Origin: Marchantia polymorpha subsp. ruderalis
Taxonomy: Eukaryota > Streptophyta > Marchantiopsida > Marchantiales > Marchantiaceae
Assembly (NCBI GenBank): GCA_037833965.1
Contig: AP031355.1
Coordinates: 30,777,501 to 30,841,500, forward strand
DNA: 64,000 nucleotides
Reading direction: 5' to 3'
The position numbers were made by a program, and so were the translations under genes. A model generated the notes under the pieces. The model saw only the letters and a list, made by a program, of their open reading frames with translations. It had not been told where the DNA came from and ran no database searches. This document shows positions 33,380-62,373 of the stretch, one piece after another (position 1 is the first letter of the stretch; each line of letters opens with the position of its first letter).

Positions 33380-33612
33380 TGTAATAACCCACCAAAGGTT
33401 AAAACTGCAGTATGGTGGTAAAAAGATCGAACCCACAGGGACAGAGGCAACACACATAGTAAAAAGTGTCACGTTTAACAGACTTTTGTAGAGTTTGAAT
33501 TCTCAGGCGACTGTCACTCCCAGAAATACTGCAGTGCTCGACTCGGAGGCCACTCGGAGGATGCTCAACTCGGAGGTCACTCGGAGGATGCACAGTGCAG
33601 CGTAGGTCACTC

Positions 33613-33633
33613 AACACACACACACACACACAC
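33613..33633. repeat. (CA)n microsatellite in the tail of member B
   Basis: About ten CA units. Just to the left, at 33540-33600, ACTCGGAGG is repeated several times in short tandem units. Confidence 0.85.
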
Positions 33634-34266
33634 CTGAAACTGGAAAAGCACAACTCAGAGATCGGTCATGACCTCCGCTTAGGATTTCAGGGGGAAAGTA
33701 TTTCAAAAGTTCACTCAGAGGCTCTGCAGGTAGTGACTCCCACTCCGGCTTTTACAGCCCTTCCGCCAGGAACTAGCGTAGGGAACCCGGACTGGACTTC
33801 CCACTTCGGAACGAAGTCCCTCATACGCCGCGGACATCACCATCGACTCACACCAAGCGCAGAGAGTACAGGCCCGACTGAGAACTTAACTGAGACACAA
33901 TCCAGTAACACACACACAACCTGAATTGCAAACCAAGGTTTACACGAAGTAACAAAACTTCACTTTGGCATTCAGGGGAAACTTCCCGTAGGAGTACAAT
34001 CAGGATATATCACTCGAAGGAGTAAGGGGGAACTGTTCAAGTCTCTAACTCGCAGCCGGCTCTGAGCATCAGAAATCACCCGCAGGTGCAGATCCGCACT
34101 ACTCAAGTCTCTAACCGGGTACTAGCTCTGAACATTCAGCCGAAGGCCTTCAGCTACAACATACGGTAACTTCGCTATGCTGCAGCTTCTCTACGTGGTG
34201 CCAGGACCAAATGCACAAACACGCCAAGATCTGCACTGATCTGCACTTCCAAAACTGGAAGAGTCC

Positions 34267-34295
34267 CAAGGCAAAACGCCTTGAACTACTTTATA
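34267..34295 (-). promoter_or_regulatory. TATA-like box and hairpin of member B
   Basis: On the minus strand TATAAA (34295-34290) is followed by CAAGGC-loop-GCCTTG (34283-34267), a 6-bp stem with a 5-nt loop. The same pair of signals lies at the same place, after the family gene, in member C, and in variant form in E. Position and order fit an LTR promoter driving transcription outward into the tail. Confidence 0.55.
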
Positions 34296-34438
34296 CCCTC
34301 TAAGATCCTGACTAACACTACGCTACTCTATCTGCTATTCTGAACTCCTGCACGAAACCAAACTACACTACTGCACTCTATAGATCCGGTGCTGCGCCTC
34401 CTGCGCGCCGGACTGCCTCGCACCCTATCTCTACCCTG

Positions 34439-37400
34439 TCAATCTTCCGACCGGGTGCGCAACCCCAGTCGCCGAAGGGCTGCAGTCACTTCCGACTCTA
34501 AGTGCGCCATAGTGTCGCGCGCACCCGACAAGAAGGCTTCTAATTTCCTTGCTACTCGCCGCCGACTCCGACTGTCACCCTCCGTCAATGCCGCCGCCCG
34601 AAGCTCAAACTTCCTGAGTGTGATCTTCTCTTGGGCTGCCACCTCCCAATGGGCGTATACTTTTAGATAGTGAGTCACCCGCGTCACCAACTCTTCTCGT
34701 GTCCGGCTGCTGCCTTCCACCTCTGCTAGCTGCATCTCCGCATCTGCGTGCTGCGCCCTCAAATCCCCGCACTCGGATTGCAAGTTGCGCAACAACTCCT
34801 CATCCTCCTTGCGCGAGCTTTGACTTTCCTCTAATGCGCGCTTCTGGCGCGCAAGCTCCTCTGTTAGAACGCGGTTTTGTCTCCGCTCTTCCTGCAATTC
34901 CGACTCGATCTTTGCCCGCATTAGCTCAGCATCCGCCTGAGCTTTCGTCGCCACATCCTCCCGCTGTTGTTGCAGGGTTTGGTGTAGCCTCTGCGTGATC
35001 GCCAGGTGCTGTCGGAGGGCAATATACCTCTCCTGCCATGTTTGGCACCTAGAGGCCCAAGTGGCCACCTTGCTCCTCATCCTGCGCTTGACAATCTCCA
35101 CATAAGACTGCGGTTTTGTGGAACTCAAGTACTTGGATGTCTTGCGATCCAAATATCGCAGGAGTGGAACTATCTGCTCGCACAATACCCATGTTGGCGT
35201 CTTCTGCACAGAGTCCGCTTCCTGCTCTTCCGAACTCGTCTCATCCTCTGTTTCGAGGATTTCAGTCGCCACAGGATCTCTTGGCGACTCCCTTGAACTG
35301 TGGCGCGCGGCAGCTTCCGCTGCGACTGCCGCTCCACTCCATGCTAAAATATCCAACGCAGTGGGGGATCCCACTGCTTGAGCCCCTGTTCCGGCTCGAT
35401 CTTCGGTTCCCGAAGAGGTCGGCGCCGCAGTAACTTTTGTCACCCTTGCACCGCCCGCTTCTACTGCCTGCTTGTAACCATCTTTAGTTAGTTAGAACTA
35501 AAGTAGAGGTTACTCTGAATATTGATGTAGATACTTTAGTGTGCACTAGTCATAGCTGCCACGTCAGCGATCCGCGCACTTTGTAGGTACAGAGTGGATG
35601 TGTTAGTTGACAGTGCCACGTCAGCAATCCGTGTGCTTGTAGGTAAGGATTGAGTGTGTTAGTTAGTGTGTTAGTTGGGTGCGCCACGTCAGCGATCCGT
35701 GTGCTTGTTAGGGTTATCCGCCACGTCATCCATCCACTAGGAGTGGTATGGATGGTGGGGATTAGATCTTATCACCTTGTACTTGTTGGTGAGAGCTATA
35801 TAAGGGAGAGGAGAACCATTGTTGGTATCTCTCATCTTCAGAGTTTACGTTTCTATCTTCGAGTGAACTTCTCTCTAAACCCTAGTGTTACAATGGTATC
35901 AGAGCGACCTTGCTCTTTCCTTGAGTGTGGATTACCCCTCATGGAATAGCAAGTGAGTGATGATGGAGTGTAGTCTTGAGAGTGTATAGAGGCTGGCAGA
36001 GGTCATTCATCTGCATGTAGAGAGAGGTGGAAGGGGGACATTGTGTTTTTGCAGATATGGACGGGATTGACAGGAATCCAGTACCGCACTGGCCAATTCC
36101 TAACCTATTCGATATTCACCTTCGTTGCATGGAGAAACATCATTTTCGGATGTACCTTGTGGCTTGTTGAGGTGCAGATTTTATGACTAGAGTGATGGAG
36201 TCAAGAGTGCCACTGATTCTTCCAATAGTTACTTATGGAGAGACTTGGGATTGTACTATATACATTCTATACTGATTGTTTCATGGATTTGAACCGCGAA
36301 CCACCTGTCCCGGTTCGATTCAGCACTTATGTAGAGATTAGAACAGTATATAGACAGAAGAGGATATGGAGAGATTTTCTTGTGAGGAATTATGGAGAGG
36401 AGTACTATAGAGCTGTGATAGAGTCACCTGCACCTTTTGTGACTCCTTTGTTGAGAGGTCACATAGTGATTATACTCACTTTGTATTAGAGGGAGTGTGA
36501 AAAAGCATGGGAACATCAATTGATATGGGTGAGGTTCTCAATGCAATCATGGCGGAGATGAAGGAGTTGAGAAAAGCGATAGTAGATGGGCATACCAAGC
36601 AGCAAGCCATGGAAGATAAAATCTTTGCATTAGAGAGTGAGAAAGTAGATAGAGAGAGAGTTGGAGAGATGGAAGTTGAACCTCAAGTTCAAGCTTCCCA
36701 AGTTCAGCCAGAACCAACTCCTATTGATGCAGCAGAGGCAAATAGGAGACGTCTTCAAGAGATTGAAGATCAAGCAAATCTTTTGCTTCGAATGGGAAAA
36801 TCCTGTAAGGTGGAAGCTTACAAAGGGAGTAGAGCAATGGGAGTGTTAGAGGGATGGATTATGAGGATGAATATTCATTTATCCCATTTTCATGTTTCTG
36901 ATTATATTGCAGGAATGTTCATGAGATCTTATCTTACGGATAAGGCTCTCACATGGTACACAACATGGGAGAGAATGCTTTCAGAACGAGGTGCTACCAT
37001 TTCGTGGAGTGGAATGCAGGAAGGACTTCTGCAAAATTTTCAAGCGGTGGATTCTCTTCAAACTGCAAGAATGAAGTTGTGGGATCTGAAGCAGAAAGGA
37101 GGTATTCATGAGTACATTGAAGAATTTCGTGATCTTCAAGTATCTATCATGGATATGAGTGGAGCTGAAGCCTTGGACGTGTTCAAACGAGGCTTGAAAG
37201 ATCGAATTCGAAAGGAGGTGATGGTAAGCAATCCATCTACTGTGAATGAAGCAATCGCAATTGCTCAACGAATTTCAGGTGCTTTTGGTGTCACACACGG
37301 TGAGCCAGTGAGCAATTTTAGAGATCCATCTGGTCCAACACCGATGGAGTTGGGAAACCTTCGACGTAGAGAAGGTTTTGCACCAACAAGAGGACCACCA

Positions 37401-40400
37401 CCAAGATTTGGAGGAGAGATTAGGCGACCAGGAGTTCCAAATTTGCAAGAAGGTTATGCAAATAATGGAATGGTTCGAGGAGGAGCTGGAGTTCGTGACA
37501 ATCGCCAATGCTATGCATGTGGACGAATGGGTCACATAGCCAAGTTTTGTCGAGTTCGGCCGACACAACAAGGAGGACGGCCCATGCAGCGACGACCGTT
37601 CAACAATATGGAGGGGATAGAGTATGAAGAGGTGGAGGAAGCAGTTTCGGGAAACGAAGATCACCAGTAATCTTGCCTCGCGGCCTTACTGGTTCTACAA
37701 AGCGAAGAAAAGGCGAGGTTGGAAGAAAGCAATGGTTGGGAGCTCATGGAAGGAGTAAGAAGCAAGCTCAACTCATTGTCACTGATGGTTTCATGGAAGG
37801 ACACAAGGTGAGAGTTTTAATTGATCCTGGAGCAACTGAGAATTTTCTATCAAGGAGTGTTGCTATGAAGTTAGGTTTGATGTTGATGAAGGACGTGAGT
37901 GAAGAAGTTGAATTGCCAAACGGGCAAACTGAAGTGATAGAAACACTACCACGGAGTGTAGAATTATCCATAGGTAGATACAAGGAGAGCATTGAATGGA
38001 GAGTAATTCGTTTAGCTCGGTATGATGTCATCCTTGGAATGCCATGGATGGAACAATATAATCCGAAGGTAGATTGGAGAAGAAAAGTGATTACAAGTAG
38101 CGGATGGAAGATCTATGGAGATAGAATTAGATCTCAGAATAGGAATTTACCCCTCTTTGTGATGGGTACAGCATCCATTTCTAGAGATGATGTATGTTTC
38201 CTTGGACTTATAAGAGATATTGGGTCCACGGACAAACCTTACATCCCGGAGTCCTTGAACGACATTTTTATGGAGTATAAAGATGTTTTTCCAGATGATC
38301 TACCTGCAGGATTACCACCAAAGAGGCGAGTTGATCACAAGATTGAGGTGATACCTGGAAGTACACCAACTTGCAAAGCTCCATATCGTTTGGCTCCAAA
38401 CGAATTGGAAGAATGCAAAGCTCAAGTGGAGGAGATGTTGAGCAAGGGATTCATTCAGCCAAGTGTTTCACCTTATGGAGCTCCAGTACTCTTTGTGAAG
38501 AAGAAGGATGGATCCATGAGACTATGTATCGATTATCGCGGGTTGAATCAGCAAACGGTGAAAAACAAATATCCATTACCTCGTATGGATGATTTGTTTG
38601 ATCAACTTCAAGGAGCGAAGAACTTCACCAAGCTAGATTTGAGAAGCGGCTACAATCAAATTCGAATTGCAGATGAAGATGTTCACAAGACAGCTTTTCG
38701 TACTAGGTATGGACACTTTGAGTATCTGGTGATGCCTTTTGGTCTCACTAATGCACCAGCTACATTCATGGGATTGATGAACGATATCTTTCGCCCTTAT
38801 CTAGATAAATCTGTCATTGTTTTTCTAGATGATATATTGGTGTATAGCAAAACTTTGAGTGATCATAGAAGTCATTTACGAGAGGTACTTCAAGTTTTAA
38901 GAGACAATCAATTGTATGCCAAAGCTTCAAAATGTGAATTTGGCAAGTCAGAAGTAGATTACTTGGGTCATAGAGTTACAGCTACAGGAATCCAAGTGAT
39001 GAGTGAGAAGATAGATGCCATTCAGAAATGGATAGCACCTGAGGATCAAACTCAATTGAAGAGTTTTCTAGGGCTCACTGGATTCTATCGTAGATTTGTG
39101 AAAGGTTTTGCTCGACTAGCTCAGGCCTTGACTTCCATGTTAGGGAAAGGTCAGAAGTGGAGATGGGGAACAGCTCAAGAGTTAGCTTTTCAAGCATTGA
39201 AAGATGCTTTGTTACACGCACCTATTCTCAAGTGGTATGATCCTAACCGTTCTATCAAGTTGGCCACTGACGCATCAGGTACAACAGTAGGTGGCATACT
39301 TCAACAAGAATGGGAGGATGGATGGCATCCAGTTGCTTTCTATTCTCGAAAGTTGGTGGCGGCGGAACAAAATTATCACACGACAGAACGGGAGGAGTTA
39401 GCTATCGTGTTGGCAACCAAACATTGGAAGCATTATCTGGGTGATAAGGAGTTTGTGGTGGAGACTGATCATAAACCCTTGGTTTATTTGGAAACTCAGA
39501 AGGATCTGTCCAAACGACAAATTCGATGGGCAGAGTGGCGTCAACGCTTCAACATGAAGATTGTGTACGTGGAGGGAAAGAAGCAACTTGCAGATGCTCT
39601 CACACGCATGCCTTGTTTGAATCATGTTGCAGAAGTGAAAATTCAGGCGGATTGGTGGAGCAAGATGTCACAAGCCACAAAGGAGGATGAAGAGATCACT
39701 CGAGCACTACAAACTGGAAAGGCAGAGAAATCTCGAGGTTTGGCGTTTTACAATCAGCGTATATGGATTCCACAAGATCACGATTTGCGCACAATGATTT
39801 TGGCAGAAAGTCATGATACAGCCATTGCAGGTCATGTGGGAGTGGAGAAAACCGTGGAGAGTATACAACGAGTGTACTATTGGCCCAAAATACGTGAGGA
39901 TGTGGAGTCTTACGTTCGAAGTTGTGTTGCTTGTCAACAAAACAAGGCAAGTAATCAAAAACCAGCGGGTTTATTACAACCTCTTCCTATTCCCGAACAG
40001 CGGTGGGAACATGTCACCATGGATCTTGTATGTGAGTTACCAAGGACTTCGTTAGGACATGATTCAGTGGTGGTTTTTGTGGACAAATTGAGCAAGATGA
40101 TTCACATCAGGCCAACCACAAAAACAGTAACAGCTCCACAACTAGCTCAATTGTATCTAGACGCAGTTTTTGTGAATCATGGCTTAAGCAAAGTGTTAAT
40201 CACGGATAGAGGTACTCACTTCACTAGTTTATTTTGGAAAACTTTGTTTAGTTTTTTCAAAACAAAACTAGCAATGTCAACGGCCTATCACCCTCAAACT
40301 GATGGACAAACTGAGAGGGCAAATAGAACCATAGAGGATATGCTACGAGCATTCACATTAGAAGAGCAAGAAGAGTGGGACAACCTTTTGCCACTTGTGG

Positions 40401-43033
40401 AATTTGCATATAACAATTCTGTTAATGCATCCACAAAAGTGTCTCCATTTTTTCTTATGTATGGAGCTCATCCGATAACTCCTTCAAGTTTGATGAGACT
40501 TCCGAAAGGAGAGGAGTTTTCGACCAAAGTTGCAGCAGTCAACGAATTCGTGGAGCATATTCACCGAGGACTACATCAGGCCAAGGAGAAGTTGGTGATA
40601 GCTCAAAATCGGCAAAAGCAGCATGCCGATGCTCATCGTAGAGAAGTGATTTTTGAGGTTGGAGATCATGTTTGGTTATCTACAACGAATTTGTCTCTTG
40701 TAGGAACACCAAAGTTAAACCCTAGGTACATTGGTCCATTTTTGGTTTTGAAGCGTGTTGGTGAAGTGTCATACAAGTTGGAACTTCCGTCACATATGAA
40801 AATACATCCAGTATTTCATGTGTCACGATTGCGAAAACATGTACCACGACCAAAACAATTCACCAATCAACCAGCACCACCTCCTCTTCCAACCTTGATA
40901 GCAGATCATGAGGAGTTTGAGGTAGAAAAGATACTCAAGAAACGTATTCGAGGTCATAAATATCCCAAAGTACAGTATTTGATTCAATGGAAAGGCTATC
41001 CATCGTATGAATCAACTTGGGAACCAGCTAAAAATTTAGCAAATGCACCTTTGATAGTTCAGGAGTTTGAACGTATGTGCAACGAGGACGTTGCATCTTA
41101 AAAGGAGGGAGGTTTGTAACCATCTTTAGTTAGTTAGAACTAAAGTAGAGGTTACTCTGAATATTGATGTAGATACTTTAGTGTGCACTAGTCATAGCTG
41201 CCACGTCAGCGATCCGCGCACTTTGTAGGTACAGAGTGGATGTGTTAGTTGACAGTGCCACGTCAGCAATCCGTGTGCTTGTAGGTAAGGATTGAGTGTG
41301 TTAGTTAGTGTGTTAGTTGGGTGCGCCACGTCAGCGATCCGTGTGCTTGTTAGGGTTATCCGCCACGTCATCCATCCACTAGGAGTGGTATGGATGGTGG
41401 GGATTAGATCTTATCACCTTGTACTTGTTGGTGAGAGCTATATAAGGGAGAGGAGAACCATTGTTGGTATCTCTCATCTTCAGAGTTTACGTTTCTATCT
41501 TCGAGTGAACTTCTCTCTAAACCCTAGTGTTACACTGCTCTTCCGGCGCGATCTGCGTGGACGGTGTCTTCGCCGGAGGTATGTCCGCCGAAGGCCCCCG
41601 CACAATGGTCGCCGGCCCTGTCCGTCTCGCAGTCGGCGAATCTGGCCGACTCTTAGTTGACCGACTAGCAGTTGTCCGACTGGCAGTCGGATCTACCCTG
41701 CGCGTCTTCACTCCGCTCGGCCTGATTGCTGGCGGCGTTTTCCCAGAAGCGCCTTCTGCCGAAGGCGATCCTCTGGGGTTGTTGGCTCGTCAGTCAAACT
41801 CCCTTCTGCTTCCGGCCTGCTATCCAGTTCAACGCGCTGCTCAGTTGGCCGTACTTCAGTTGGCCGACCTTCAGTCGTCCGACTCGCAGTCGGCCGACTG
41901 TCAGTTCGCCTGTCTTCTTCTGGAGGCATCGGTGCCTTCTGCGCATAGGTGTTAGCCGACCTCCCTAGAATCTGCGCGATGATCTCTTCTTGCGTGGGCA
42001 GGATACTCCGTCGGACCGAAGTACGCCCGGTCTCCTCAGTACTAGTTGGCAACGCCACTTTGCGTGCCCTCTGTTTAGGCCGGCTGTGAGGCTCGTTGGT
42101 TGGCCGACTCCGAGTCGGCGCAGCGGGAGCTTCCGGCTGCCTGTCTTCAGGCCTCTCATCCCATTTCCGCTTTCGCGGAGCGCGCTCACTTCGACGCTCT
42201 TCTGTTGCTCTTGCTGGAGCCGGAGCCGGAGCTAGACTGGCAGGTGCTTCGTCCGGATCTGTGTCCACTTCGGCCTCCCGCAAGTATCTACATGGATAAC
42301 TCCGGGTCAGTAGCGGAAACCGTGTCCGCTCCGAAGTTGTCAAACATCCCATCGCTCGATAAAACACAATCAGGTAAGGCGAATGATGATTGAGGGTCCC
42401 TCCTCTCTCTTCTTGCGCATGTTGGCGCGTCACCTTCCACAGGAGCCGTGCCCAATGAACCGGAGCTCCTGACAACACTAGCTCCAAAAATCCCACTTGC
42501 CAACCATGCATGTATGCGGTCTTGGTCGGTTGCAATATCTGCAGCAATGCAGTCGCGACATTTCTCCGCAATCGATCTTTGTAATCCCGTGTCCGAAAAC
42601 CGTTCTTGGGATGCCTGGCCACTTTGAAAAGGTCATTGTAGGAGATTTCTTCCTCCTTGGACACCTTCACGCTCTCGGCCTCGAAGAGTAGAAACCCTTC
42701 CTCGCCTGCACACCTTCCTAACACCTGCGCCCAGTCACTAATGTCCCACCTATCGGGATGTGGGCGGAATCCGCGCGAGGGCTTGTGTTTCTCCTGCAGA
42801 TACTCGCACACCATCTCCGGACATGTCCAGTTCCATCTCCACAGGAGGAAAGCAAGCTTCAGCCTTGTTAGCACATCTTGGAATGCGCGCAGACCGATCT
42901 GCGGCACTCTGAGTGGGGACACTCGCAGCTGGGGGACCTTCGACATCTTTCTGGCTGTTCCTGCAAACACACAGACGTTCTCCCTTCCGCTCGCTCTCTC
43001 ACAATTGCCGCTGCGCGTCGGTCGCTTAGACAC
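34439..43033 (-). CDS. Family gene, copy B: unknown coiled-coil protein, interrupted by chromovirus
   Basis: Best preserved copy of the family gene. N-terminal part 42946-41708 (or from the ATG at 43033): a globular domain of about 230 residues with [20 protein letters not shown], a WNW motif, [21 protein letters not shown] and [19 protein letters not shown]; then a long Arg/Pro/Thr-rich charged linker. C-terminal part 35443-34439: [28 protein letters not shown], a heptad-rich coiled coil (about residues 120-260 of this part) and a conserved end with [20 protein letters not shown] and [12 protein letters not shown]. The chromovirus lies between the parts at 35473-41534. No RT, integrase or zinc knuckle. 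The P-x-W-G-L-SP-Y-G spacing loosely recalls plant transposon-associated proteins of the gag-like kind, but I do not recognise the family. Which start is used is unsure. Confidence 0.65.
35473..35892 (+). repeat. 5' LTR of the young chromovirus
   Basis: 420 bp from TGTAACCATC to CTAGTGTTACA. The U3 has four CCACGTCA sites (35559, 35616, 35684, 35721) embedded in imperfect direct repeats. A TATATAA box lies at 35797-35803, followed by R and U5. Confidence 0.95.
35894..35905 (+). other. Primer binding site (initiator-Met tRNA)
   Basis: TGGTATCAGAGC starts one base after the 5' LTR and matches the complement of the 3' end of plant initiator methionine tRNA, the usual primer of plant Ty3/gypsy and Ty1/copia elements. 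Confidence 0.93.
36507..37670 (+). CDS. gag: Gag polyprotein of the young chromovirus
   Basis: 387-residue Gag, the particle-forming protein. A short coiled N-terminal segment (residues about 10-60) precedes the capsid-like region (about 90-265: [50 protein letters not shown]). A single CCHC zinc knuckle [14 protein letters not shown] is at residues 335-348, then a basic tail. The first ATG after a 600-bp leader is used. Its last about 40 nt overlap the pol frame. Normal length for plant gypsy Gag. Confidence 0.93.
37649..37718 (+). promoter_or_regulatory. Probable -1 ribosomal frameshift signal between gag and pol
   Basis: GGGAAAC at 37649-37655 is read G-GGA-AAC in the gag frame, the X-XXY-YYZ form of a -1 slippery site, and a -1 shift lands in the pol frame. 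After a 7-nt spacer an 8-bp perfect stem follows (ACCAGTAA 37663-37670 with TTACTGGT 37686-37693). Loop bases CCTCGC (37676-37681) can pair with GCGAGG (37713-37718), which would make an H-type pseudoknot. Frameshifting is a known Gag-Pol strategy in LTR elements; its use here is inferred. Confidence 0.7.
37673..41101 (+). CDS. pol: Pol polyprotein of the young chromovirus (PR-RT-RNaseH-IN-chromodomain)
   Basis: About 1142 residues in the -1 frame relative to gag; this frame is open from about 37628. Aspartic protease with [10 protein letters not shown] (about residue 50), reverse transcriptase with LCIDYRGLN and FLDDILVYS (about 380), RNase H with LATDASGTT (about 530), integrase with an HHCC zinc domain ([12 protein letters not shown] ... 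CVACQQNK, about 710-760) and DDE core residues in [16 protein letters not shown] and DGQTERANR, then a chromodomain ([13 protein letters not shown] ... [17 protein letters not shown], about 1082-1133). Chromodomains are thought to steer integration to methylated-histone chromatin. No own ATG at the start suggests expression as a Gag-Pol fusion. Confidence 0.94.
41100..41114 (+). other. Polypurine tract
   Basis: AAAAGGAGGGAGG followed by TT sits directly against the 3' LTR, overlapping the pol stop codon; this is the expected primer for plus-strand DNA. Confidence 0.85.
41115..41534 (+). repeat. 3' LTR of the young chromovirus
   Basis: 420 bp; I found no difference from the 5' LTR on reading both through. 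It is followed directly by the second CTGCT target copy. Confidence 0.95.
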
Positions 43034-43739
43034 TGACTAAAATCGCTCTCTCTTGCGCGCTCAAGTTCGCTGCTCGCAAACTCTCTGCAAGGTCTGTCAA
43101 GATCCTCGCGCAACTCGTCTCCGCACTCTCTCTTCTCATTCCAAGATTCCGCCCTTGCGCGTAATCTTGGAAGCTGGAAAACTCACAATCAAGAATGAGA
43201 GAATGAGACTCGAGAGCAGTCTTTTCTTCTCCGAATTCAAGATCGCCCAACGTTCTCACTTGTTACAATCAAACTTGATTACGCAGCCGGCTATACGGCC
43301 TAACGGTTCTCCCTCGCATGCTCGAATTCACGTCTCCGCACTGCGCGCATTCGCATGCGTGAACGTTGAATTCTCCCGCTGCCATTGTCTTCCGGACTCG
43401 AGTTCGCCGCAGTGGAGCGTATGCTTCGACTAGGTTGTCTTTTCCTAACCTGCCCATCGCCGGAGGCGTATCGCCGCTGGCGTATTCCTTCCCCGTCGGC
43501 GCCTCGCTGGAGGCGCGCATCAAGTCGGCGCGAATTACGCCGGCGCGTATTCGTAACACTTGTTTTGTCCGTTCTGCCCCGCCTGTCGCCGACGGCGCAT
43601 ATCCCGCCGGAGCAAATCATGCCGGCGCACCCGCCTATCCGTGCCACGTCGGAGGCGTACATCCGGCCGGCGCTTCTCTTCCGTTGCGCAGCCATCAAAG
43701 GCGCTTCCGCCTCCGAATTGATCTCCTCCCATGAGCGCG

Positions 43740-44170
43740 TGGTTCCGCCGAAGGCGCATCGCCGAAGGCGTACGGAAGTCCTTCCCGACGGTGAACCCTA
43801 GCGTGAACAGCGCATGTCCGGATGCGAGTTTTCTGACGCTCATAACTTCTTCGTCCCTAATCCATCTCCAGCGCTCTTGAGCTCGTTAGAACGAGCGTCC
43901 CGAGCTCTTTCCAATGCAACCTCAACCAACTGGAACGACCGTGAATCCTGATTGTTATGAAGGTTTCCCTCCCGCGCTAGCGGCGCATCGCCGAAGGCGC
44001 ACTCATGGTCGGAAGCCTTCAGAGGTCCTTGCCGGCCTCTGACGTCTTCAGCGAGATCTCCTCCGGAGGTGTCTGTGCCGGAAGCGTATCTTCTCTAAAC
44101 GCTGGAAGCGCGTTAGTAGAGTCACCTCAGCAAAGGAGATCTTGCCGAAGGCGCCGAAGGCATTTGGCGC
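43740..44170. repeat. GCCTTCGGC-type motifs and 130-bp module in the 5' part of member B
   Basis: Contains scattered GCCGAAGGC/GCCTTCGGC motifs and, at about 43845-43975 (minus orientation), a module with CATAAC, GGTTGAGG, GGAAAGAGCTCG, ACGAGC and GAGTTATGAGCGTC-like blocks. The same module is found at 44615-44745 in member C and four times in tandem at 56974-57845. Confidence 0.7.
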
Positions 44171-44325
44171 TGGTACGTCCAACTTCGCGCTTCTTCGTGA
44201 CCTCGTGACGATCTCCTCAATCCACTCTATTTAACGTACCATTTCCTAAGTACAGACACTGCTTCGGTACTTGTTTTCTAAAATTGTTTAAATTTTGCAA
44301 AAAAAACAAAAAGTGTGTTACCACA

Positions 44326-44342
44326 AGACTCAATGGAGTGAG
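44326..44342. other. 17-nt target remnant between members B and C
   Basis: The spacer consists of AGACT (duplication of B), CAATGGA and GTGAG (duplication of C). It is therefore leftover sequence of the older unit A/D, and B and C are two separate insertions placed head to head. Confidence 0.7.
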
Positions 44343-44614
44343 TGTGGTAACCCACTTTTTGTTTTTGTGCGGAATTTAAAACATTTTTGGAAAACAGTAC
44401 CGCAGCAGCAACTGTAAATAGTAATCGGTACACTAAAATACAATGAAAATGAATGATCGCGGGTCTCGTAGAATCATCGAGAATCATAGAGTTGGGCGCA
44501 ATGTCCGAGACAGGCGTCATGGCCCGAACGGACGGTTCCTACTGAGGGGAAGCTCCTTCGGCGCGAGCCGGAGAATACGCCTTCAGCGCTAGACGCCTTC
44601 AACGCTAGAGAAAT

Positions 44615-44745
44615 TCCTCATGACTGTTCCAATTTGTAACGCCTTGACTTGGTTAGGATCTTGTTGAAGAGAACTCTACACGCTAACGAGCCCAAGAACT
44701 CTTGGAATGGATAAGGGATCATTGAGTTACGAGTGTCGGAAGTTA
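44615..44745 (+). repeat. 130-bp shared module in member C
   Basis: Contains CTCATGACTG, CGCCTTGACTTGGTTAGG, CGAGCCCAAGAACTCTTGGA and TTGAGTTACGAGTGTCGGAA. It matches the inverted copy at 43845-43975 in B and the four tandem copies at 56974-57845. No coding potential. Confidence 0.75.
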
Positions 44746-44749
44746 CTGA

Positions 44750-45240
44750 TAGGGAGCGCCTTCGGCGACGAACGATACGCCTTCGGTTGAAGCGCCTTCG
44801 GCTCAAGGGTCAACGCCTTCGGCGCTGTAATCCTTCGCCTGAATGCCTTCGGCGCCAGCACATCAAGATTAGGTCAACGCCTTCGGGGCAAGCGACTCCG
44901 TACGGTCCGCCTTCGGCCGAACGTCTTCGGCGATATGTCCTAGTCGGACACGTGCGCCTTTGGCGGAACGGAACTCCTGCGGCGAGAGCGTCTTCGGGGG
45001 GACAACACAGATCAACGGAAAGGACAAGACGAGTTGACTTTGGTCAACGCCTTTGGCGATGCACCTAAGTCGACGGACATCTTCAAGGGTACGCCTTTGG
45101 CGCTGCGGGTCAAAGCCTTCGGCGGAAGATGTACGCCTTCGGCCGTGCGCCTTCGGCGGTGCGGAAAGGGAAAGAATCGGGAATCGGCCAGAGGCGAAGG
45201 CCTCCGTCGCCACGCCTTTGGCGTTGCGCGAGCAGGGCTA
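44750..45240. repeat. Cluster of GCCTTCGGC motifs, member C upstream part
   Basis: CGCCTTCGGCG and close variants recur every 15-40 bp, with loosely similar spacers. The motif is self-complementary (GCC-TTC-GGC) and could form many tiny hairpins in RNA or single-stranded DNA. Confidence 0.8.
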
Positions 45241-45639
45241 AGTCGACGGACGACTGTGGAAATTGAATTCAATTTTCGAGTGTGTGAGCCCGCTTAACGG
45301 CGGAGCGTGAAGCTGAGCGTGCGAGATGGGGGCCGTTACGCTTCCAAGCCGGCGCGGCAATCAAGTGGGTCGATCCTCACGCCCAAGTGTCGACGATGAA
45401 ATCTTGTGTGCTGAAGGCGGGTGTCTCATTCTTGGAATTGCAATTTCGATTTCTCGCGAGAATTTGCGGAGAGAAATCGGAGAGAGCTTCGATACGCGGG
45501 GAATTGCAGGATAGAGCGAAGCAGCTGAGTGCGCGGCCGAGGGAATTGCTAGGGAGTGAGAGTGAGAGCTCGCGGAGAGATCGCGTCCGTGTGCTAGAAG
45601 CGTGGAGCTAGCAGAAGACAGTTGCGGACTTCTGAAGTG

Positions 45640-48192
45640 CGCGGGGAATTTCAAGAACGCGACATCGAAGGCGACGTTGCTGCGGATGATTCCGCTGAAG
45701 CTACCGCAGATTGGGTTACGCGCATTCCAGCACGAGCTGACTGCAGTGAAACTCGATTTCCTCCTGTGGGGATGGAATTGGGTGTGCCAAGACATGGTGC
45801 GCGAGTGGCAGAAGGGAAGGGACCAACCTACGCGCGGATCTCAACCGCACCCGGAGCGATGGGACGTCAACGACTAGGAGCAGGTCCTAGAAAGATGCGC
45901 GGGAGAAGGTCATTTTCTGTTTGAGAGTGAGAGCATCAAGGTCACGAAGAAGGAGGAGATTTCCTTCGCGACCCTATTCAAGAGCAACAAGTCCAGCAAG
46001 AATGGGTACAAGACCCGAGACTACAAGGATCGATACCAAAGAAATGTCGCGGTAGCACTTATTCAACTCTTGCAGCCGCAAATGACCACCTACATAACTT
46101 CTTGGCACGTGGCATTCGTGGAGCTGACGTTAGCCGGAGCTCCGATTCATTGGGCTCGCATTCTGTGGAAGATAACGAGGCTGCATGCGTTCGAGGAGAA
46201 GGGAGGATCGATCAATCACCTCTCCCCCTTCTTGATCAATTTCTATCGGTCGATGGGTTGTCTGACCGCGACCGAGCGAGTGCAATTTCCATTGCTGTCA
46301 CGCAGCAATCCGGGGCGGTATGTGAAGGACGTCGAGGTTGACACCGACAAAGACGAGACCCCTGCCTGCACGCCACCAGCCCAACCGAGGGCCGAAGGAG
46401 AATCGCTCGCAGCACGAATGCCGCGGAAGCAAAGATGGGAAGGAGGAGCAGAGAAGGGCCAGCAACGCGAGGCTGCAGCTCTCAAACGGAAGCGGCCACT
46501 AACAGAGCTTTGCAGTCGGCCTAAGCAAAAGGCACGCAGGCTCGTGTTGCCTGCAAGCAGCGCGGAGACGGGGCGTGCTGCAAAGGGAAGGAACTCACCA
46601 TCCTCGAGGGAGGATGGGAGCGCGCGGACTGCAGAGAGGTCAGCTAACCTCCCTACGCTGAAGGCACGTACGCCTTCGGCTAAAGCAAGACGGCATTCGG
46701 GTCAAGAGAAACAACACGCGGCACCGACGAATGTGCCGGCGACGGACAGGTGCTTCGCTTCCGAGCAAGTACCGTTCGATGACTTGACCTCGGGTCAGGA
46801 GCCTTCGGCGCAGCAGAAAAGTGGAAAGGAGCCTTCAGCTCAAGGGCCTTCGGTCTAAGAGCTTTCGGGTAAGGAGCTTTTAGGGCAAGAGCCTTCGGCT
46901 GAAGCACCTTCGGCTAAAGGGCCTTCGGCCTAAGGGACTTCGGGTCAACGGCCTTCGGGTGAGCCGCCTTCGGCACAACCGCCTTCGGCGGAAGCATCTT
47001 CGGCACAGACCCCATGCGAGAGGACGGTCGACGAAGAGAAGGAGGAGGCACGTGTGCCTTCGGCATAGCCGCCTTCGGCTCAAGCGCCTTCGGCGGTGGA
47101 TGCCTTCGGCACTGCGCCTTTGGTAGTGACAGAACAGGCGGGCGGTGCGGGCTTGTCGGGAACAGGATCCCCCACCGCATTAGACATTTTGGCAGGGAGT
47201 AGTGCGGCGGCAGCAGCAGCAGAAGCTACGCAACCCAACTACCGGGAATCGCCAGGGAATTCCGTGGCGACCAAAATCCTCAATTCGGAGGATGACGAAG
47301 ACGAATCGGGCTCGGAGGAGGAGGAGCAGTCGGTGAAAGGCACGCCGACGACGGCATTGTGCGAACAGGTGGTACCTCTGTTGAGGTACCTCGATCGCAA
47401 GGTGGCAAAGTATGCTGACCCCCGCCAGCCGGGGTCCTACGTTGAATTGGTGCGCAGGCGAACGCGCACCAAAGTCAGGACTAGTAGCTTGTTGGCCTCC
47501 TTGGACGAGGACATCAAGGACCTGCGGTTAAAGAACGAGGCCCTCCGCGGACACCTCGCAACCGTGTGGAAATTGCAGAAGGTAGTTGACAAGACGCGGG
47601 ACGAGAAGTTCGAGGAAGCGAAGAAGGAATTTGCAAAGTAGCAAGCGAAGCTCGCGGATGAGCTCGATTTTGAGCAAACTTAGAATCGCATCTTGTCAGA
47701 GGAGCTCGTGCGACAAACACGGTTACTAGAGCAGTGTCAGCTCGCACGCCAAGCCGATGAAGACTCAATTCGCCGCAACTGCAATCGCAGTGCGGCGAAT
47801 TGAGAGCGCAGCGTGCGGAGGCAGAGATGGAGCTGGTAGTAGTTGAAGACGATCGCCGGCGGGAGGCAGATTGCACACGAGAAAAGTTGGTGGAACAATT
47901 GAACCACTGTCTCTGAGGTTACACTCTCTGGGAAGTGGCTACGCAGGAGAAAATCACACTGCGCGAGTTAGAGCTTCGTGCGGCGGGCTTGATGTTGGGT
48001 GACAGTCGGAGCCGACGGCGAGTGGCAAAGCGATTAGATGCCTTCCTGGCAAGGTCGCGGGACGCCATTGCGAACCTCAAGGCGGAGGTGACCGCGGTGT
48101 TGCGGCGGCTGGGGTTGCGTAGTAGAGCCGAAGACTGGTCGGGTAGGGAGTTAGCGCGCGGCACTCCGTCGCGCAGGAGACATAGTAAATGA
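45640..48192 (+). pseudogene. Family gene, copy C, broken
   Basis: Same domain order as copy B. N-terminal domain from about 45660 ([20 protein letters not shown], then TSWHVAFVELTLAGAPIHWA and SPFLINFYRSMGCLTATER near 46080-46280); charged linker with PSA/PKA runs made from GCCTTCGGC motifs (46680-47115); [14 protein letters not shown] and SYVELVRRRTRTKV (47360-47480); coiled coil; C-terminal helix with EKITLRELELRAAGLMLGDS and LRRLGLRSRAEDW (47947-48140). It is broken by a few changes. Similar to B throughout but clearly diverged, so neither is a recent copy of the other. Confidence 0.65.
46680..47115. repeat. In-gene cluster of GCCTTCGGC motifs
   Basis: About 20 copies of CCTTCGGC or one-base variants, spaced roughly 10-25 bp, inside the linker-coding part of copy C. 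In one frame they add Pro-Ser-Ala steps. The same motif fills non-coding parts of members B, C and the insertion at 56.7-58.9 kb, so it behaves as an invading short repeat. Confidence 0.8.
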
Positions 48193-49249
48193 CCTGCAGC
48201 GTCCTGCAGTGTAGTGCAGCGTAGGGTAGTGTGTAGTGTTATTTAGGACTGAGAAGGTATAAAGTAGTTCAAGGCGTCTTGCCTTGGGATTCTTCCAGTT
48301 TTGGAAGTGAAGATCAGGAACTCATTTTCTCTACGTGTTTGTGTCCTTAGTTCTGTCACCGCGCAAGAGGAGCTACAGCTTGACAAAGATACCGCATTTT
48401 GAAGGCCTTTGGCCGAATGTTCAGAGCTAGTGTACTGGTTAGATACTTGAGCAGTTTGGATCTACACCTGCGGGTGATTGCTGAATGCTCAGAGCTAGTA
48501 ACTAGTTAGATACTTGAACAGTTTGTCCCTACACCTTCGAGTGATTGTTCCTGTTTGTACTCCTTCAGGATGTTTCCGCTGAATGCCAAAGTGAAGTTTT
48601 GTTACTTCGAGTAAGCCTTGGTTGTAAATTCAGGTTACGCTGTAGAAGGCACCCTCGGGGCAAACCTCTGCAGTATTTTTGGGAATGACTAGTGCTTGAG
48701 AATTCAAACTCGTCAATAGACTGTTATGCTGTGCCACTGGATCTTTTCTCAGTTGAGTTTCTAAGTTTGGACCTGTATTCTCTGCGCGTTTTGTGAGTTG
48801 AGTGTGTTGTTCACCGCGTGTGAGTGACTTCGGTTTGACGAAGATACCGCATCCGAAGTAGGAAGTCCAACCCGGGTGCCCTACGCTAGCAGAAACTAGT
48901 GGAAGGATTGTAAAAGCCGGAGTTGGGAGTCACTACCTGCAGATTCGCTGAATGTACTCGTGAGAGATTTTCCCCATGAAATCTTAAGTAGAGGTCCTAA
49001 CCGACCTCAAAGTTGTGTTTCTATAGTTTCAGGTGTGTGTTGGGGTGAACTACGCTGCACTGTGCGTCCTCCGAGTGACCTCCGAGTTGAGCACTTGCAG
49101 TATTTCTGGGAATGACAGTCGCCTGAGAATTCAAACTCTTCAATAGTCTGTTAAACGTGACACTTTGTACTCTGTGTGTTGCATATGTCCCTGTGGGTTC
49201 GACCTTTTTGTTGCTATACTGCAGTTTTAGCATTTGGTAGATTATTACA
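48192..49249 (+). other. R-U5-like tail of member C
   Basis: About 1 kb with no open frame, closely similar along its length to the tail of member B (33380-34438 on the minus strand). It contains internally duplicated blocks (TCAGAGCTAGT at about 48421 and 48490) and ends with CTGTGGGTTCGACC, then GCAGTTTTAG and GATTATTACA. A (T/G)TGGGTTCGA-type motif near the 3' end is known from LTRs of plant Tat/Athila-like elements; that link is from memory and is not proof. Confidence 0.5.
48258..48286 (+). promoter_or_regulatory. TATA box and hairpin of member C
   Basis: TATAAA at 48258-48263, then CAAGGC (48270-48275), a 5-nt loop and GCCTTG (48281-48286). Located 66 bp after the end of the family gene. 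Matching signals in B and E support function rather than chance. Confidence 0.6.
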
Positions 49250-49254
49250 GTGAG

Positions 49255-49671
49255 TTGAGGTTGCAACGGATGCAAGCCGAGGAGCAATTATGCGAGATGG
49301 AGACAAGATTGTCGGAGGTAGAAGAGAAGAACCGGTAGTTATCAGAGCAAACGAATGACGCCTTGATTGTGAGGGTGAATCGATGCATGCGAAGGTTTGT
49401 ATTATGGCAGGTCGAGACGCATAAATGGTTGTAGTTACGAGATCTTAAGCGCCGTGCGACGGAAATGATAGCATTGAGTGTTAGAGGGCAACACCAGTTA
49501 ATCAAGAAGCTTGACGCATTTTTAACAAGGTCGCGCGACGCGGTAGTGAACTTGGAGTTAGAGCTAGCGGCCGTTTTGCAAAGGTTAGGTTTAGATCGGA
49601 AGTTAGAAGGGAAGGCAACCACCGACTCCGCAAGAGTAGGACCTATTTGGAGCTCGCATCAGAGCGAGTGA
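49255..49671 (+). pseudogene. Family gene, copy D (C-terminal part of the A/D copy), broken
   Basis: Coiled-coil residues (ELRLQRMQAEEQLCEME) followed by the conserved C-terminal helix: KKLDAFLTRSRDAVVNLELE and AVLQRLGLDRKLEG (about 49500-49600). It lines up with the end of copies B and C. It lies immediately right of member C and probably belongs with copy A on the other side. Broken. Confidence 0.6.
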
Positions 49672-50216
49672 CAGTTTTGAGTAAGTTAGAAATAAGGAGG
49701 TCCAAGGCATTGTCCATGGGGTCTTTTCTCAAATTTAGTTTCTCTTAGTTTTGAAGTCTGCGTTCTCCGCGCGTCTGTGAGTTGGATGTTTTGTCACCGG
49801 GGAAGAGTTACTTCGGTTTGTCAAAGATACCGCATCCGAGGTAGTAGCACAATTCAAATGTTCTAAATAGCGATTGGCTAGAATAAGGATTTAAGCAAGT
49901 TCACGATTGGCAGCTGCGTGTAGATCCCTGAGTGTAGGCTTTGGGAATTTTCTCCCTTGAATACTAAGACAAGGTTGCAATCGACCTTTGTGATGCTACA
50001 TTTGAGAATTTCAAGATTATTGTGTGTATTACGCTGCATTTTGTGTCCTCTGAGTTGAACACCTGCAGTACTTTTGGGAGTGACAATGGTTTGAGAATTC
50101 AAACTCCTCAATAGACTGTTAAATATGTGACACTTGATACTCTTTGTGTTGTTTCTGTCCTCGAGGAATCAGATCTTTACCATTATGCTCCATTCTAGTA
50201 TTTATCTGTCATTACA
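49672..50216 (+). other. U5-like tail of member A/D
   Basis: 545 bp without coding potential, ending CTCCATTCTAG ... CTGTCATTACA. It shares the final TTGTAATGACAGA-type terminus (read in reverse) with member E and has a weak CCAAGG/CCATGG hairpin near 49702, where B, C and E have theirs. About half the length of the B/C tails. Confidence 0.5.
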
Positions 50217-59768: not shown

Positions 59769-62373
59769 ACAACGGCAATTCTGGGATATCAACCGCCTGA
59801 GGCAAATTGGTCTCAGGGGCTGTGCCGTCCGATGTAGCGGTTACGATGTCATCTGAACTTACATCTACTCCTAGCCTACGCAACACATTTACAATCTCTA
59901 CTTCTACATTCTGGCGCGCCTCATTCAATTCCTCTGAAAATGTGTTAACTAACTCTACAATATGTTTGTGTCCGGCGGATCCGCTGGTCATGGCGCTCAT
60001 CAACCGCCGCTCGAGCGAATCTAACTTCAGCCACTTCACCGTTTGCAATCCCCACATCGCGAACCCGTTTAGACACTTCTTCAACCGCAACTTCAATCCG
60101 TTGGTTGTCACGTTCCGCAGATGACGGTAGGCCTCCTCTGCCTTTTCCATTTTCCTTTGCGACTCCTGCGATCTCATGTCCGCCTTACCTAACTGCTCCC
60201 GCAACCGTCGACATTCCGATTCAACCTTCAATTTAAATTTGTCCTCCAAAGTTCTGGTCGATTCACAATCCATCAATTTCTTGGCCCAATTCGCCAATTA
60301 CTCCTCATGCTTCCGGACCTCCTCCGTCAAACTTGCTGATAGCTCCTCCGCACGTCGGAATTCAGCCTCGCACTTACCCTCAATCTCTGAAACCTTGCGA
60401 CGAAGATCATCTTCCGCCGTCTACGCCTTTGCAATTTTGGCCCGAAGTTCTTCGGCGATGCGAACTTCTTCAGCTCTTGGGACCTCCAATGTAGCAAGTT
60501 CCTTGATATGTTTCTTCTCTCGCTTCTCCGCAGGTGATCAGTCGCTCCAATCGCTTAACTGCTTCATCATATGCTTCCTTGGATTTATCCAACCTCGTGA
60601 GCAAATCCACTGTCATCTTCTGCCCGTTCTCGTTAGAGTTGCGAAGTCCACCACAGGTCTCCTCCAACTCTGCACATCGTCCGGATTCCTTCTCCAGATT
60701 CAATTGCAGTACTTTGCACTCAATTTTCTTCTCTCAAAGTTGGACTTCTCGCTCCTGCAATGTCACTTCACTGCCGCGCACTCGGTTGCCAAGTTTGCCG
60801 CTCGCTCCCGTGCCAATTCAGTCGCGGAATCCCACTCCCTCTTTACTGCTAGTGCTCTCTTGAGCTGCGGTATATTTCTTATCATCTCTACATAAAATAC
60901 TACCTCCTTGGACACAACATACTTCTCTCTCTTCCCATCCAGATACTTCAGTAATGGGACCACACTATCTTGCAAGAAGTCGGGGAAAGAAACGACTAAC
61001 TCCTCCGGTTCCTCCTGCGAAGTCTTCGCCTCTTTTGCCGGCCTCACTTCTTCCGTAGGAGATGACGACAATGCACTGTTTGAGTCATCTACCACCGTCC
61101 CTCCAACCTGCGCAACAATCTGTTCCAATACTTCGTCGCTTAATGTTAGCTCATTTACCAATTCTTCGCTCTTCTTCGGATGTGGTATTCCTTCACTTCC
61201 CGCAGTTTGTGTCCGGTCCAAAGACAGAGAGTTTGGACTAACTCTTTCCATTCCCTCCTTCAAAGGTTCCGCCAGTGTTTCTGCTGAAACTTCAATCAAT
61301 ACCCACAAAGATCCTTCCCTCCCTACAGGCTATGTTGACTTGCCCACTGCGACTTTGGGTGTACTCACAATCGGAGCAACTGTCTTTTCTACGCTGCTAT
61401 TCGATACTTCTGCTAACCTGTAACTCATGATTCACCCTTTTCTTTGGTCTTGCGCGAGTTCTCGACTGCCTGATCACATCTACTTCTGTTTCCGTTCTTC
61501 TTACTTCAAGTGCCAAATCTCCTTCGTCATCTCTCACTACTCGCCTTCTCTTCGCCACTCGTCTCTCCGACTTTTCCCCGTCTCCGCACAACCTCCACTT
61601 GAACTGGTCCTTGGGCTATCGTCTGTGATGGAATGGAGGGTCGACGGGTATCGTCCTCGGTCCCTTTGCTGGACTTGATCGTCAAGATTTCCCGCTCCTT
61701 CGGATATCGCTTCTTCTCCTCTCTCGTAAGCAACCCCATGCCTCGGTAGAAATCACCAAGAAGGAAGTGAGATGATTGACCAATGGTTCTGTCCACCGAT
61801 CGGACGCATTCACCTAGACAAGATCGTGAAAGATCCTTGTCCAGTGTACTCCTTGTCCCTTCAAGATTCGTTCAAAGAACCCTACATGCCAGGCCGTCAC
61901 ATACGTTGTATAGCTGGTCGCAATATGTGCATAATTCCCAACGCTATCGCCCTTCTCTTCGGATCTATGTAATCCGCTGTCTTCCACCCGTTCGTTCCCT
62001 GTCTCCCAGAACTGAAGAGTGGTCCGTAAGAAAATTCTTCGGTGCACGTAAGTCCCACGCTACTCTTCTCAAACACAAGGTCTCTGTCGCTACCTACGCA
62101 CGGTCCCATCATCTTCGTCCAATGCTCGATTGTCCAGAGCATGGGATTACTTTGAAGCTCCACGCCCTCGGTCTGGTTCTTATCCATTATCTCCTTATAG
62201 ATACTCGCCGAGACGCAATTCCAATTCCAAAAGAGGAATTCAAGTCGCAACTCGCTCAGCTCGCGTCTGAAGGGTCGCAATTCATCGTAGGGCACCTTCA
62301 TGAGAACCAATTTCCGCACCTTGTCACTCTTCTTTGGCCCCATGACTTTGATTCGCGTCTTTGCTGCTAGCAA
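59767..62373 (-). pseudogene. Family gene, copy E, broken
   Basis: The N-terminal domain begins about 62340 (KVPYDELRPFRRELSELRLE, FWNWNCVSASIYKEI), with AWHVGFFERILKGQGVHWTR (about 61890) and HFLLGDFYRGMGLLTREE (about 61760). Then come a linker, LLKYLDGKREKYV (about 60950), a long coiled coil (60890-60100) and a C-terminal segment ending NVLRRLGVDVSSDD (about 59860). Same module order as copy B but well diverged, with several breaks. The coiled coil is the longest of the four. Confidence 0.6.

What the first reader, a model, noticed from the sequence alone, without database searches (positions are those of the whole stretch)
44343..49249. A gene carried inside what looks like a giant solo LTR
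Seen: unit C has TG...CA ends, a perfect 5-bp duplication GTGAG, a TATA box after its gene, and a 1-kb U5-like tail, but no second LTR, primer site or pol. Members B, A/D and E share these ends and this order. Established: integrase-made 5-bp duplications and TG...CA ends mark LTR elements, and solo LTRs arise by recombination. Inference: these are solo LTRs of a giant-LTR retrotransposon whose U3 encodes a protein of its own. LTR-encoded genes are rare (retroviral sag is the known example); I know of none like this in plants.
Basis: partly seen in the sequence, partly recalled or inferred. Interest (0 to 1): 0.87.

Follow-up and report, generated by a model that had tools for sequence, protein, structure and literature searches.

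The report
Giant retrotransposon LTR carrying a gene
The segment is a lone end repeat (solo LTR) left by a very large family of retrotransposons in a liverwort genome (probably Marchantia), whose 5-kb end repeats can carry a protein-coding gene of about 950 codons, a place where genes are hardly ever found.

Summary
Unit C (44343-49249) is a solo LTR with a perfect 5-bp duplication. In the same genome, relatives of it occur as LTR pairs around Ty3/gypsy gag-pol: the LTR end ATTACA is followed by a leader, a primer site 22 nt downstream and gag, and the second LTR is preceded by a polypurine tract. Exact junctions genome-wide: 1,274 (LTR-leader) and 188 (PPT-LTR). A young element on contig C4 has LTRs of about 5.37 kb that agree at 2,660 of 2,663 compared bases. 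Its 3' LTR holds an uninterrupted frame of 1,049 codons (956 aa from the conserved Met), ending about 40 bp before the LTR's TATA box; the two sampled parts of the 5' LTR are open too. The gene shows dN/dS 0.21-0.37 in 17 of 18 computable pairs. Named homologs are all from Marchantia polymorpha; no Pfam family or known fold was matched. Function is inferred: a trans-acting accessory protein, like the extra ORFs of plant OTA elements but inside the LTR. Gene-less LTRs with clean duplications exist too. I saw no LTR-encoded plant gene in the paper listings searched.

The parts
44343..49249 (+). Unit C: solo LTR, 4,907 bp
   Evidence: TG...CA ends, flush 5-bp duplication, homologous to LTRs that flank gag-pol elsewhere in the genome
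44338..44342 (.). Target-site duplication GTGAG, left
49250..49254 (.). Target-site duplication GTGAG, right
45680..48213 (+). LTR-encoded gene in U3 of C, degenerate (several frames and stops)
   Evidence: tblastn of the L093 LTR protein: residues 7-805 at 45680-47776 (46%), 805-949 at 47776-48213 (64%)
48256..48264 (+). TATA box GGTATAAAG, the presumed LTR promoter
   Evidence: Same position relative to the gene end in C and the intact LTR L093; also present in A/D
48285..49249 (+). R-U5-like tail; start inferred from the TATA position
   Evidence: Best conserved part (about 90-95% between many listed copies), also kept in gene-less LTRs
33380..44325 (-). Unit A/D: related LTR, about 5 kb when the nested element is discounted; duplication AGTCT/AGCCT
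41765..42946 (-). A/D gene, N-terminal part
   Evidence: 46% protein identity to L093
34343..35404 (-). A/D gene, C-terminal part
   Evidence: 49% protein identity to L093
35472..41413 (+). Ty3/gypsy chromovirus nested in A/D (identical 300-bp repeats; gag, RT, RNase H, integrase, chromodomain); limits approximate. Not part of the finding
31566..33065 (+). Unit B gene, N-terminal and central part, before the A/D insertion
   Evidence: 37% and 43% protein identity in two pieces
49252..50160 (+). Unit B, gene C-terminal part and tail, after the C insertion
   Evidence: 34% protein identity at 49252-49644; DNA match to the LTR tail at 50021-50160
59848..62313 (-). Unit E gene, distant subfamily
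   Evidence: 25-36% protein identity in four pieces

Best explanation
Unit C is a solo LTR of a Ty3/gypsy retrotransposon superfamily with giant LTRs of about 5 kb. The U3 part of the LTR holds a sense-oriented gene of about 950 codons, followed within about 40-45 bp by the element's TATA box and a 1-kb R-U5. SHOWN by sequence: LTR - 22-nt leader - primer site - gag, and pol - PPT - LTR (read in separate copies); the gene in the compared parts of both LTRs of a young copy; selection on the protein; 5-bp target duplications; gene-less LTR derivatives that also inserted. INFERRED: RNA starts just after the TATA box of the 5' LTR and runs through gag-pol into the 3' LTR, so the gene lies at the 3' end of the genomic RNA and is expressed from the 3' LTR copy (spliced, or from a TATA-less promoter). 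Reverse transcription copies U3 to both ends, so each insertion makes two copies of the gene. Recombination between the LTRs then removes gag-pol and one copy, leaving a solo LTR such as C that keeps the gene, which decays. INFERRED function: an accessory protein of the element's own life cycle (mostly helical N-terminal domain, low-complexity middle, C-terminal coiled-coil-like part), acting in trans. The confidence given is for the structure; for the function I would say 0.5.
For: LTR pair around pol in L021; PPT-LTR junction in 10 of 10 sampled copies and 188 exact sites; LTR-leader junction at 1,274 exact sites, both subfamily spellings among the 100 listed; gag with Retrotrans_gag E=2e-13, RT, RNase H and integrase domains; C4 element LTRs 1101/1101, 1098/1101 and 461/461 identical; 1,049-codon frame in L093, against a longest frame of at most 385 in 300 base shuffles of that LTR; dN/dS 0.21-0.37 in 12 of 14 comparisons of the gene with L093 (the other 2 had saturated synonymous sites, pN/pS 0.48 and 0.53) and 0.22-0.29 in 3 of 3 between A/D and C types; TSDs 11 of 15; gene-less 2.4-2.7-kb LTRs with clean TSDs L013, L028.
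Against: No transcript, protein or transposition data: expression and function are untested. No TATA[AT]A motif lies upstream of the gene in C or L093 and splice sites were not searched for, so its expression route is open. The 22-nt gap between LTR end and primer site is odd for reverse transcription. In C's own subfamily only 1 of 17 predicted partner positions (of 26 exact PPT-like sites) showed the junction, and that element's LTRs are rearranged; the C-type gag in L018 contains a stop. The clean C4 pair sits in a tandem array, so its outer duplication could not be read. Selection is weaker than on gag (0.08 in one pair), one C-type pair gave dN/dS 0.54 (upper limit of pN/pS 0.92), and synonymous sites are near saturation between subfamilies (pS 0.55-0.78), so those ratios are rough.
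Confidence: 0.93

Rival explanations
1. DNA transposon: the unit itself is a mobile element with terminal inverted repeats and a 5-bp duplication, and the gene is its transposase or an accessory gene.
For: 13-bp imperfect inverted ends; gene in every subfamily seen except the short gene-less type; 43 of 44 sampled 3' ends lack the internal leader; gene-less deletion derivatives move.
Against: 1,274 LTR-leader and 188 PPT-LTR exact junctions; near-identical unit pairs around gag-pol; no transposase domain in the LTR protein. Short inverted ends are normal for LTRs (recalled).
Confidence: 0.03
2. The gene is a host gene captured by the LTR by chance and carried as a passenger without function for the element.
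For: No Pfam relative and no named homolog outside Marchantia; gene-less LTRs transposed, so it is dispensable in cis.
Against: Same gene in the same place in subfamilies ii, C and A/D, and remnants of it in B and E at 25-43% identity; dN/dS well below 1 between subfamilies. A free host copy was not searched for.
Confidence: 0.12
3. Origin (compatible with the best explanation): the gene is the usual OTA-type extra ORF between pol and 3' LTR that came to lie inside the LTR when the PPT/LTR boundary shifted upstream; function as in those elements, that is, unknown or env-like.
For: OTA elements commonly have extra ORFs, and many large non-chromoviruses have LTRs up to about 5 kb (PMC6317226, passages); here only about 40 bp separate the integrase frame from the LTR in L021 (frame, sequence); same orientation as pol.
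Against: Athila ORF-1, plant mobile domain and Transposase_28 do not appear among the Pfam matches of 40 homologs at E up to 10, although HMMER's filters lose weak matches.
Confidence: 0.5

Closest known systems
Plant Ty3/gypsy OTA superclade (Athila, Tat, Ogre, Retand)
   Same: gag-pol elements with 5-bp duplications, LTRs up to about 5 kb, extra ORFs; primer site of the tRNA-Asp type (the match to plant tRNA-Asp is recalled; its use by 6% of plant elements is from PMC6317226, passages)
   Different: The extra ORF lies wholly inside the LTR, so it is in two copies per element; its protein matched none of the extra-ORF domains named there
Mouse mammary tumour virus sag, and retroviral nef overlapping U3 (recalled)
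   Same: Gene located in U3, sense orientation, gene before the promoter
   Different: A different kind of element, far larger gene (about 950 codons), no sequence relation known; no superantigen role can be meant in a plant
Large-LTR and miniature non-autonomous elements (LARD, TRIM; recalled)
   Same: Gene-less short-LTR derivatives of the family exist
   Different: The units studied here carry a gene and have gag-pol partners

Membership tests
LTR retrotransposon (solo LTR for C) | TG...CA ends and short fixed target duplication | tested here: met
   11 of 15 complete units with perfect 5 bp, 1 with 4 of 5, 3 without a clear one
LTR retrotransposon | Two direct LTRs around an internal region | tested here: met
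   L021 97.3% over 594 bp; C4 element 2660 of 2663 compared bases
LTR retrotransposon | Primer binding site after the 5' LTR | tested here: met
   TGGCGCCGCTGCCGGGGA, 22 nt downstream in 5 of 5 loci; tRNA assignment recalled, no Marchantia tRNA was aligned
LTR retrotransposon | Polypurine tract before the 3' LTR | tested here: met
   GAGGAGGGGAGCA in 8 of 10, one-base variants (GAGGAGAGGAGCA, GAGGAGGGGAGAA) in 2 of 10; 188 exact genome sites
Ty3/gypsy | gag, RT, RNase H, integrase in that order | tested here: met
   order read from L069 (gag) and L021 (RT to integrase) in separate copies; a full internal region was not read
OTA superclade, Athila clade | RT/RH/INT phylogeny within OTA | not tested
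   No reference set of clade sequences at hand; only the primer type, giant LTR and extra ORF point there
OTA, Tat clade | Archaeal-type second RNase H | tested here: inconclusive
   No second RNase H in the Pfam scan of the RT and integrase frames of one internally deleted copy; other copies not read
Solo LTR (unit C) | Single LTR with matching duplications and no internal sequence | tested here: met
   GTGAG on both sides; unit B's gene continues after C
TIR DNA transposon | Encoded transposase, no PBS/PPT | tested here: not met
   PBS and PPT junctions present; no transposase domain in the LTR protein
Works like MMTV sag (U3-encoded accessory gene) | Protein expressed from the LTR | not testable with these tools
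   No RNA data

The most novel reading that the evidence does not exclude
A protein gene under selection has become a constituent of a plant LTR. Because it sits in U3, every insertion of a gene-bearing element makes two copies and every solo LTR keeps one, so the gene outlives gag-pol and has become one of the commonest genes of the genome (perhaps thousands of copies, many broken; the exact C-type LTR end alone occurs 2,355 times, gene-less LTRs included). Its product acts in trans, for example as a regulator or packaging factor on which gene-less LTR derivatives live as parasites, and LTR-derived copies could be taken over by the host to control the element.
Probability: 0.3. Interest if true: 0.85.

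Novelty: new variant of a known kind. Interest (0 to 1): 0.73.

Why it matters
LTRs are regarded as regulatory ends. A gene of about 950 codons that is selected as a protein inside a plant LTR, in a very abundant repeat of a liverwort genome, changes what a solo LTR can carry and bears on why some plant LTRs are so large. It also suggests that many 'hypothetical proteins' in the Marchantia annotation are LTR genes: all hits with a name in three protein searches were Marchantia polymorpha proteins called hypothetical in the NCBI names. A young copy with nearly identical LTRs makes the function testable in a plant that is easy to transform (recalled).

Tried and rejected
DNA-transposon reading: my first idea, after seeing the 13-bp inverted ends and 43 of 44 3' ends without a shared downstream sequence; dropped. 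My sampling had been biased towards copies with the highest identity to C.

TGG within 0-6 (126 hits, 100 listed) or 0-5 nt (189 hits, 100 listed) of the LTR end, with 20 copies looked at, showed no shared primer site; this was a false negative, because the primer site is 22 nt away.

L016:9820 as a gag start: rejected, since in 10 of 10 sampled copies (of 40 listed) no LTR end precedes it; that unit is inserted in another element.

C1:2506636-2512421 (internal 5,785 bp by coordinates): the LTR ends were not where predicted, probably because of nested material.

Fusion of integrase and LTR protein in P0055: taken as a gene prediction across the pol-LTR junction or a nested copy (inference).

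Literature searches: (one search was rejected for a term of more than four words). Searches listed only 15 of 960, 8 of 13,535, 10 of 110 and 12 of 392 papers. In the listings I saw no LTR-encoded gene of a plant element; the library lacks most subscription journals. Seen in papers: PMC6317226, PMC9985172, PMC5784723, PMC1560396 (passages), PMC11899658 (abstract and outline).
Full report
WHAT THE SEQUENCE SHOWS. Unit C lies at 44343-49249, with ends TGTGGTAACC...ATTACA and the flush repeat GTGAG on both sides. It is inserted in unit B: B's gene is seen at 31566-33065, is interrupted by A/D (33380-44325, minus) and by C, and continues at 49252-49644. A/D is split by a Ty3/gypsy chromovirus at about 35472-41413. 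The window is part of a 241-Mb genome in nine contigs. All named protein hits are Marchantia polymorpha, so the organism is probably Marchantia (inference).

COPIES. A search with C listed 66 matches (29 of 8,371 candidates scored); 11 of them, C included, cover at least 4,905 of 4,907 bases. The exact 17-base 3' end TTTGGTGGGTTATTACA occurs 2,355 times, against 0 for the reversed control. Of 15 complete units picked out of the held loci, 11 have a perfect 5-bp duplication (C, L003, L004, L005, L006, L008, L013, L017, L020, L027, L028), A/D has 4 of 5, and L002, L009 and L015 have none that is clear. Two shorter LTRs without the gene (L013 2,678 bp, L028 2,420 bp) also have perfect duplications; a third (L009, 2,664 bp) does not.

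THE PARTNER. In the first 44 distinct 3' ends examined, only one (L018:5001) is followed by the sequence that later proved to be the internal leader, and of 32 distinct 5' ends only one (L021:594) is preceded by the polypurine tract (counted by eye). L021 gave the key: on its minus strand, two LTR starts with 97.3% identity over 594 bp enclose reverse transcriptase-RNase H and integrase, and the second is preceded by GAGGAGGGGAGCA. Ten further pol ends, of 40 listed, all run into this tract and the LTR (tract exact in 8, one-base variants in 2); the exact junction occurs 188 times. At the other end, L069, L070 and L071 show ATTACA, TAAGAAGCCGACAACTTCTTTT, then TGGCGCCGCTGCCGGGGA and a gag frame (Retrotrans_gag, E = 2e-13). 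The same junction is in L018, whose LTR is of C's type (90% identical to C over its last 1.2 kb; gag 80% identical to that of L069 and with one stop), and in L086. The exact LTR-leader junction occurs 1,274 times; of the 100 listed, 46 have the TTTGG spelling of C's type and 54 the TTTAG spelling of subfamily ii (counted by eye). Among the first 100 TTTGG ends listed, all on contig C1, 17 carry the leader (by eye); the rest would be solo LTRs, 3' LTRs or decayed copies. C1 also contains large duplications, so this is a rough sample.

C'S OWN SUBFAMILY. A search for a PPT-like tract before a C-type start gave 102 sites with up to one mismatch, 26 of them exact. At 17 of the 26 I looked 5.8 kb upstream, and 1 of 17 had the expected LTR-leader junction (C6:2208603-2214390, internal 5,786 bp). 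Its 5' LTR is interrupted by an A/D-type unit and its 3' LTR is rearranged. C-type full-length elements therefore existed; the one traced is old and broken.

A YOUNG COPY. On C4 an LTR starts at 14483002, ends at 14488360, is followed by 5.8 kb of internal sequence (by coordinates; only its ends were read), and the second LTR covers 14494160-14499533. The compared parts of the two LTRs are identical at 1101/1101, 1098/1101 and 461/461 bases. The 3' LTR (L093) contains one frame of 1,049 codons, 1,040 aa from the first Met and 956 from the Met conserved in relatives. It ends about 40 bp before the TATA box GGTATAAAATAG. In 300 base shuffles of this LTR the longest frame was 385. Two sampled 1.1-kb parts of the 5' LTR are open in the gene's frame. 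The 5' LTR is itself preceded by the PPT, so the element lies in a tandem array and its outer duplication was not seen.

THE PROTEIN. Twenty pairs were compared. dN/dS was computable in 18: between subfamilies (ii, A/D, C types) 0.21-0.32, within ii 0.30-0.37, L093 against L016 0.22, within A/D 0.28, within C types 0.26 and 0.54. In 2 pairs synonymous sites were saturated (pN/pS 0.48 and 0.53), and between subfamilies they are close to it. gag between C and ii types gives 0.08 in one pair. So the gene is under purifying selection, weaker than gag. No Pfam family passes its cut-off for the LTR protein in any scan (one homolog, P0102, has a sub-threshold coiled-coil match). AlphaFold2 with 40 sequences gives a mostly helical N-terminal domain whose core (residues 71-170) is fairly confident, without a match in PDB or viral models. 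A low-complexity middle and a coiled-coil-like C-terminus follow, as read from the sequence; no tool tested this.

HOW IT PROBABLY WORKS. Shown: architecture, recency of one copy, selection, gene in the compared parts of both LTRs, gene-less derivatives. Inferred: the TATA box drives the genomic RNA; the gene at its 3' end is expressed from the 3' LTR; the protein serves the element in trans; solo LTRs form by LTR-LTR recombination and keep a decaying copy. In C the gene is broken in several frames, as expected for a relic.

COMPARISON. The survey of plant LTR elements PMC6317226 (passages) reports extra ORFs in most OTA elements, LTRs up to about 5 kb in many large non-chromoviruses, tRNA-Asp primers in 6% of elements, 5-bp duplications in 93.4%, and extra-ORF proteins that are highly heterogeneous. 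[quoted passage not shown] the passages seen do not speak of ORFs inside LTRs, and the words 'in LTRs' and 'within LTR' do not occur in its main text. U3-encoded sag and nef are recalled. PMC9985172 (passages) counts 222 full-length LTR elements in M. polymorpha ruderalis; the word 'solo' does not occur in its main text. Hence: a new variant of a known kind. Tandem LTR-element arrays are known from other plants (PMC11899658, abstract).

LIMITS. Genome counts are exact-match counts and therefore lower bounds.

Noticed in passing
L069, L070, L071, L018, L086: after the LTR end: The primer site is exactly 22 nt from the LTR end in 5 of 5 loci, yet solo LTRs with duplications and the 3' LTR in L093 end at ATTACA without this spacer. 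By the standard model (recalled) the spacer would be reverse-transcribed and would have to be trimmed before integration; unexplained.
   Followed up: partly
G000:C2:31351110-31384690 (minus): Four LTR-leader junctions spaced exactly 11,184 bp apart: a tandem array of LTR-internal units; other pairs 11.1-11.2 kb apart on C2, C4 and C5.
   Followed up: partly
   Followed up: no
G000:C1, about 2.18-3.27 Mb: The pattern of LTR ends repeats with offsets of about 393 kb and 366 kb: large segmental duplications on the smallest contig (perhaps a sex chromosome) or an assembly effect.
   Followed up: no
L015:4823-5001 (minus) and L016:9821-9893: The last 72-90 bp of the LTR are tandemly repeated at the 3' end of some copies.
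   Followed up: no
window 44326-44342: A/D and C are inserted head to head only 17 bp apart inside unit B; among fetched loci, several units likewise insert into one another.
   Followed up: no
window 44600-47100: Many copies of a short palindromic motif like CGCCTTCGGCG in the U3 region and inside the gene's low-complexity middle (by eye).
   Followed up: no
window 35472-41413: Ty3/gypsy chromovirus with identical 300-bp terminal repeats and long open gag and pol frames with a chromodomain: a recent insertion.
   Followed up: no
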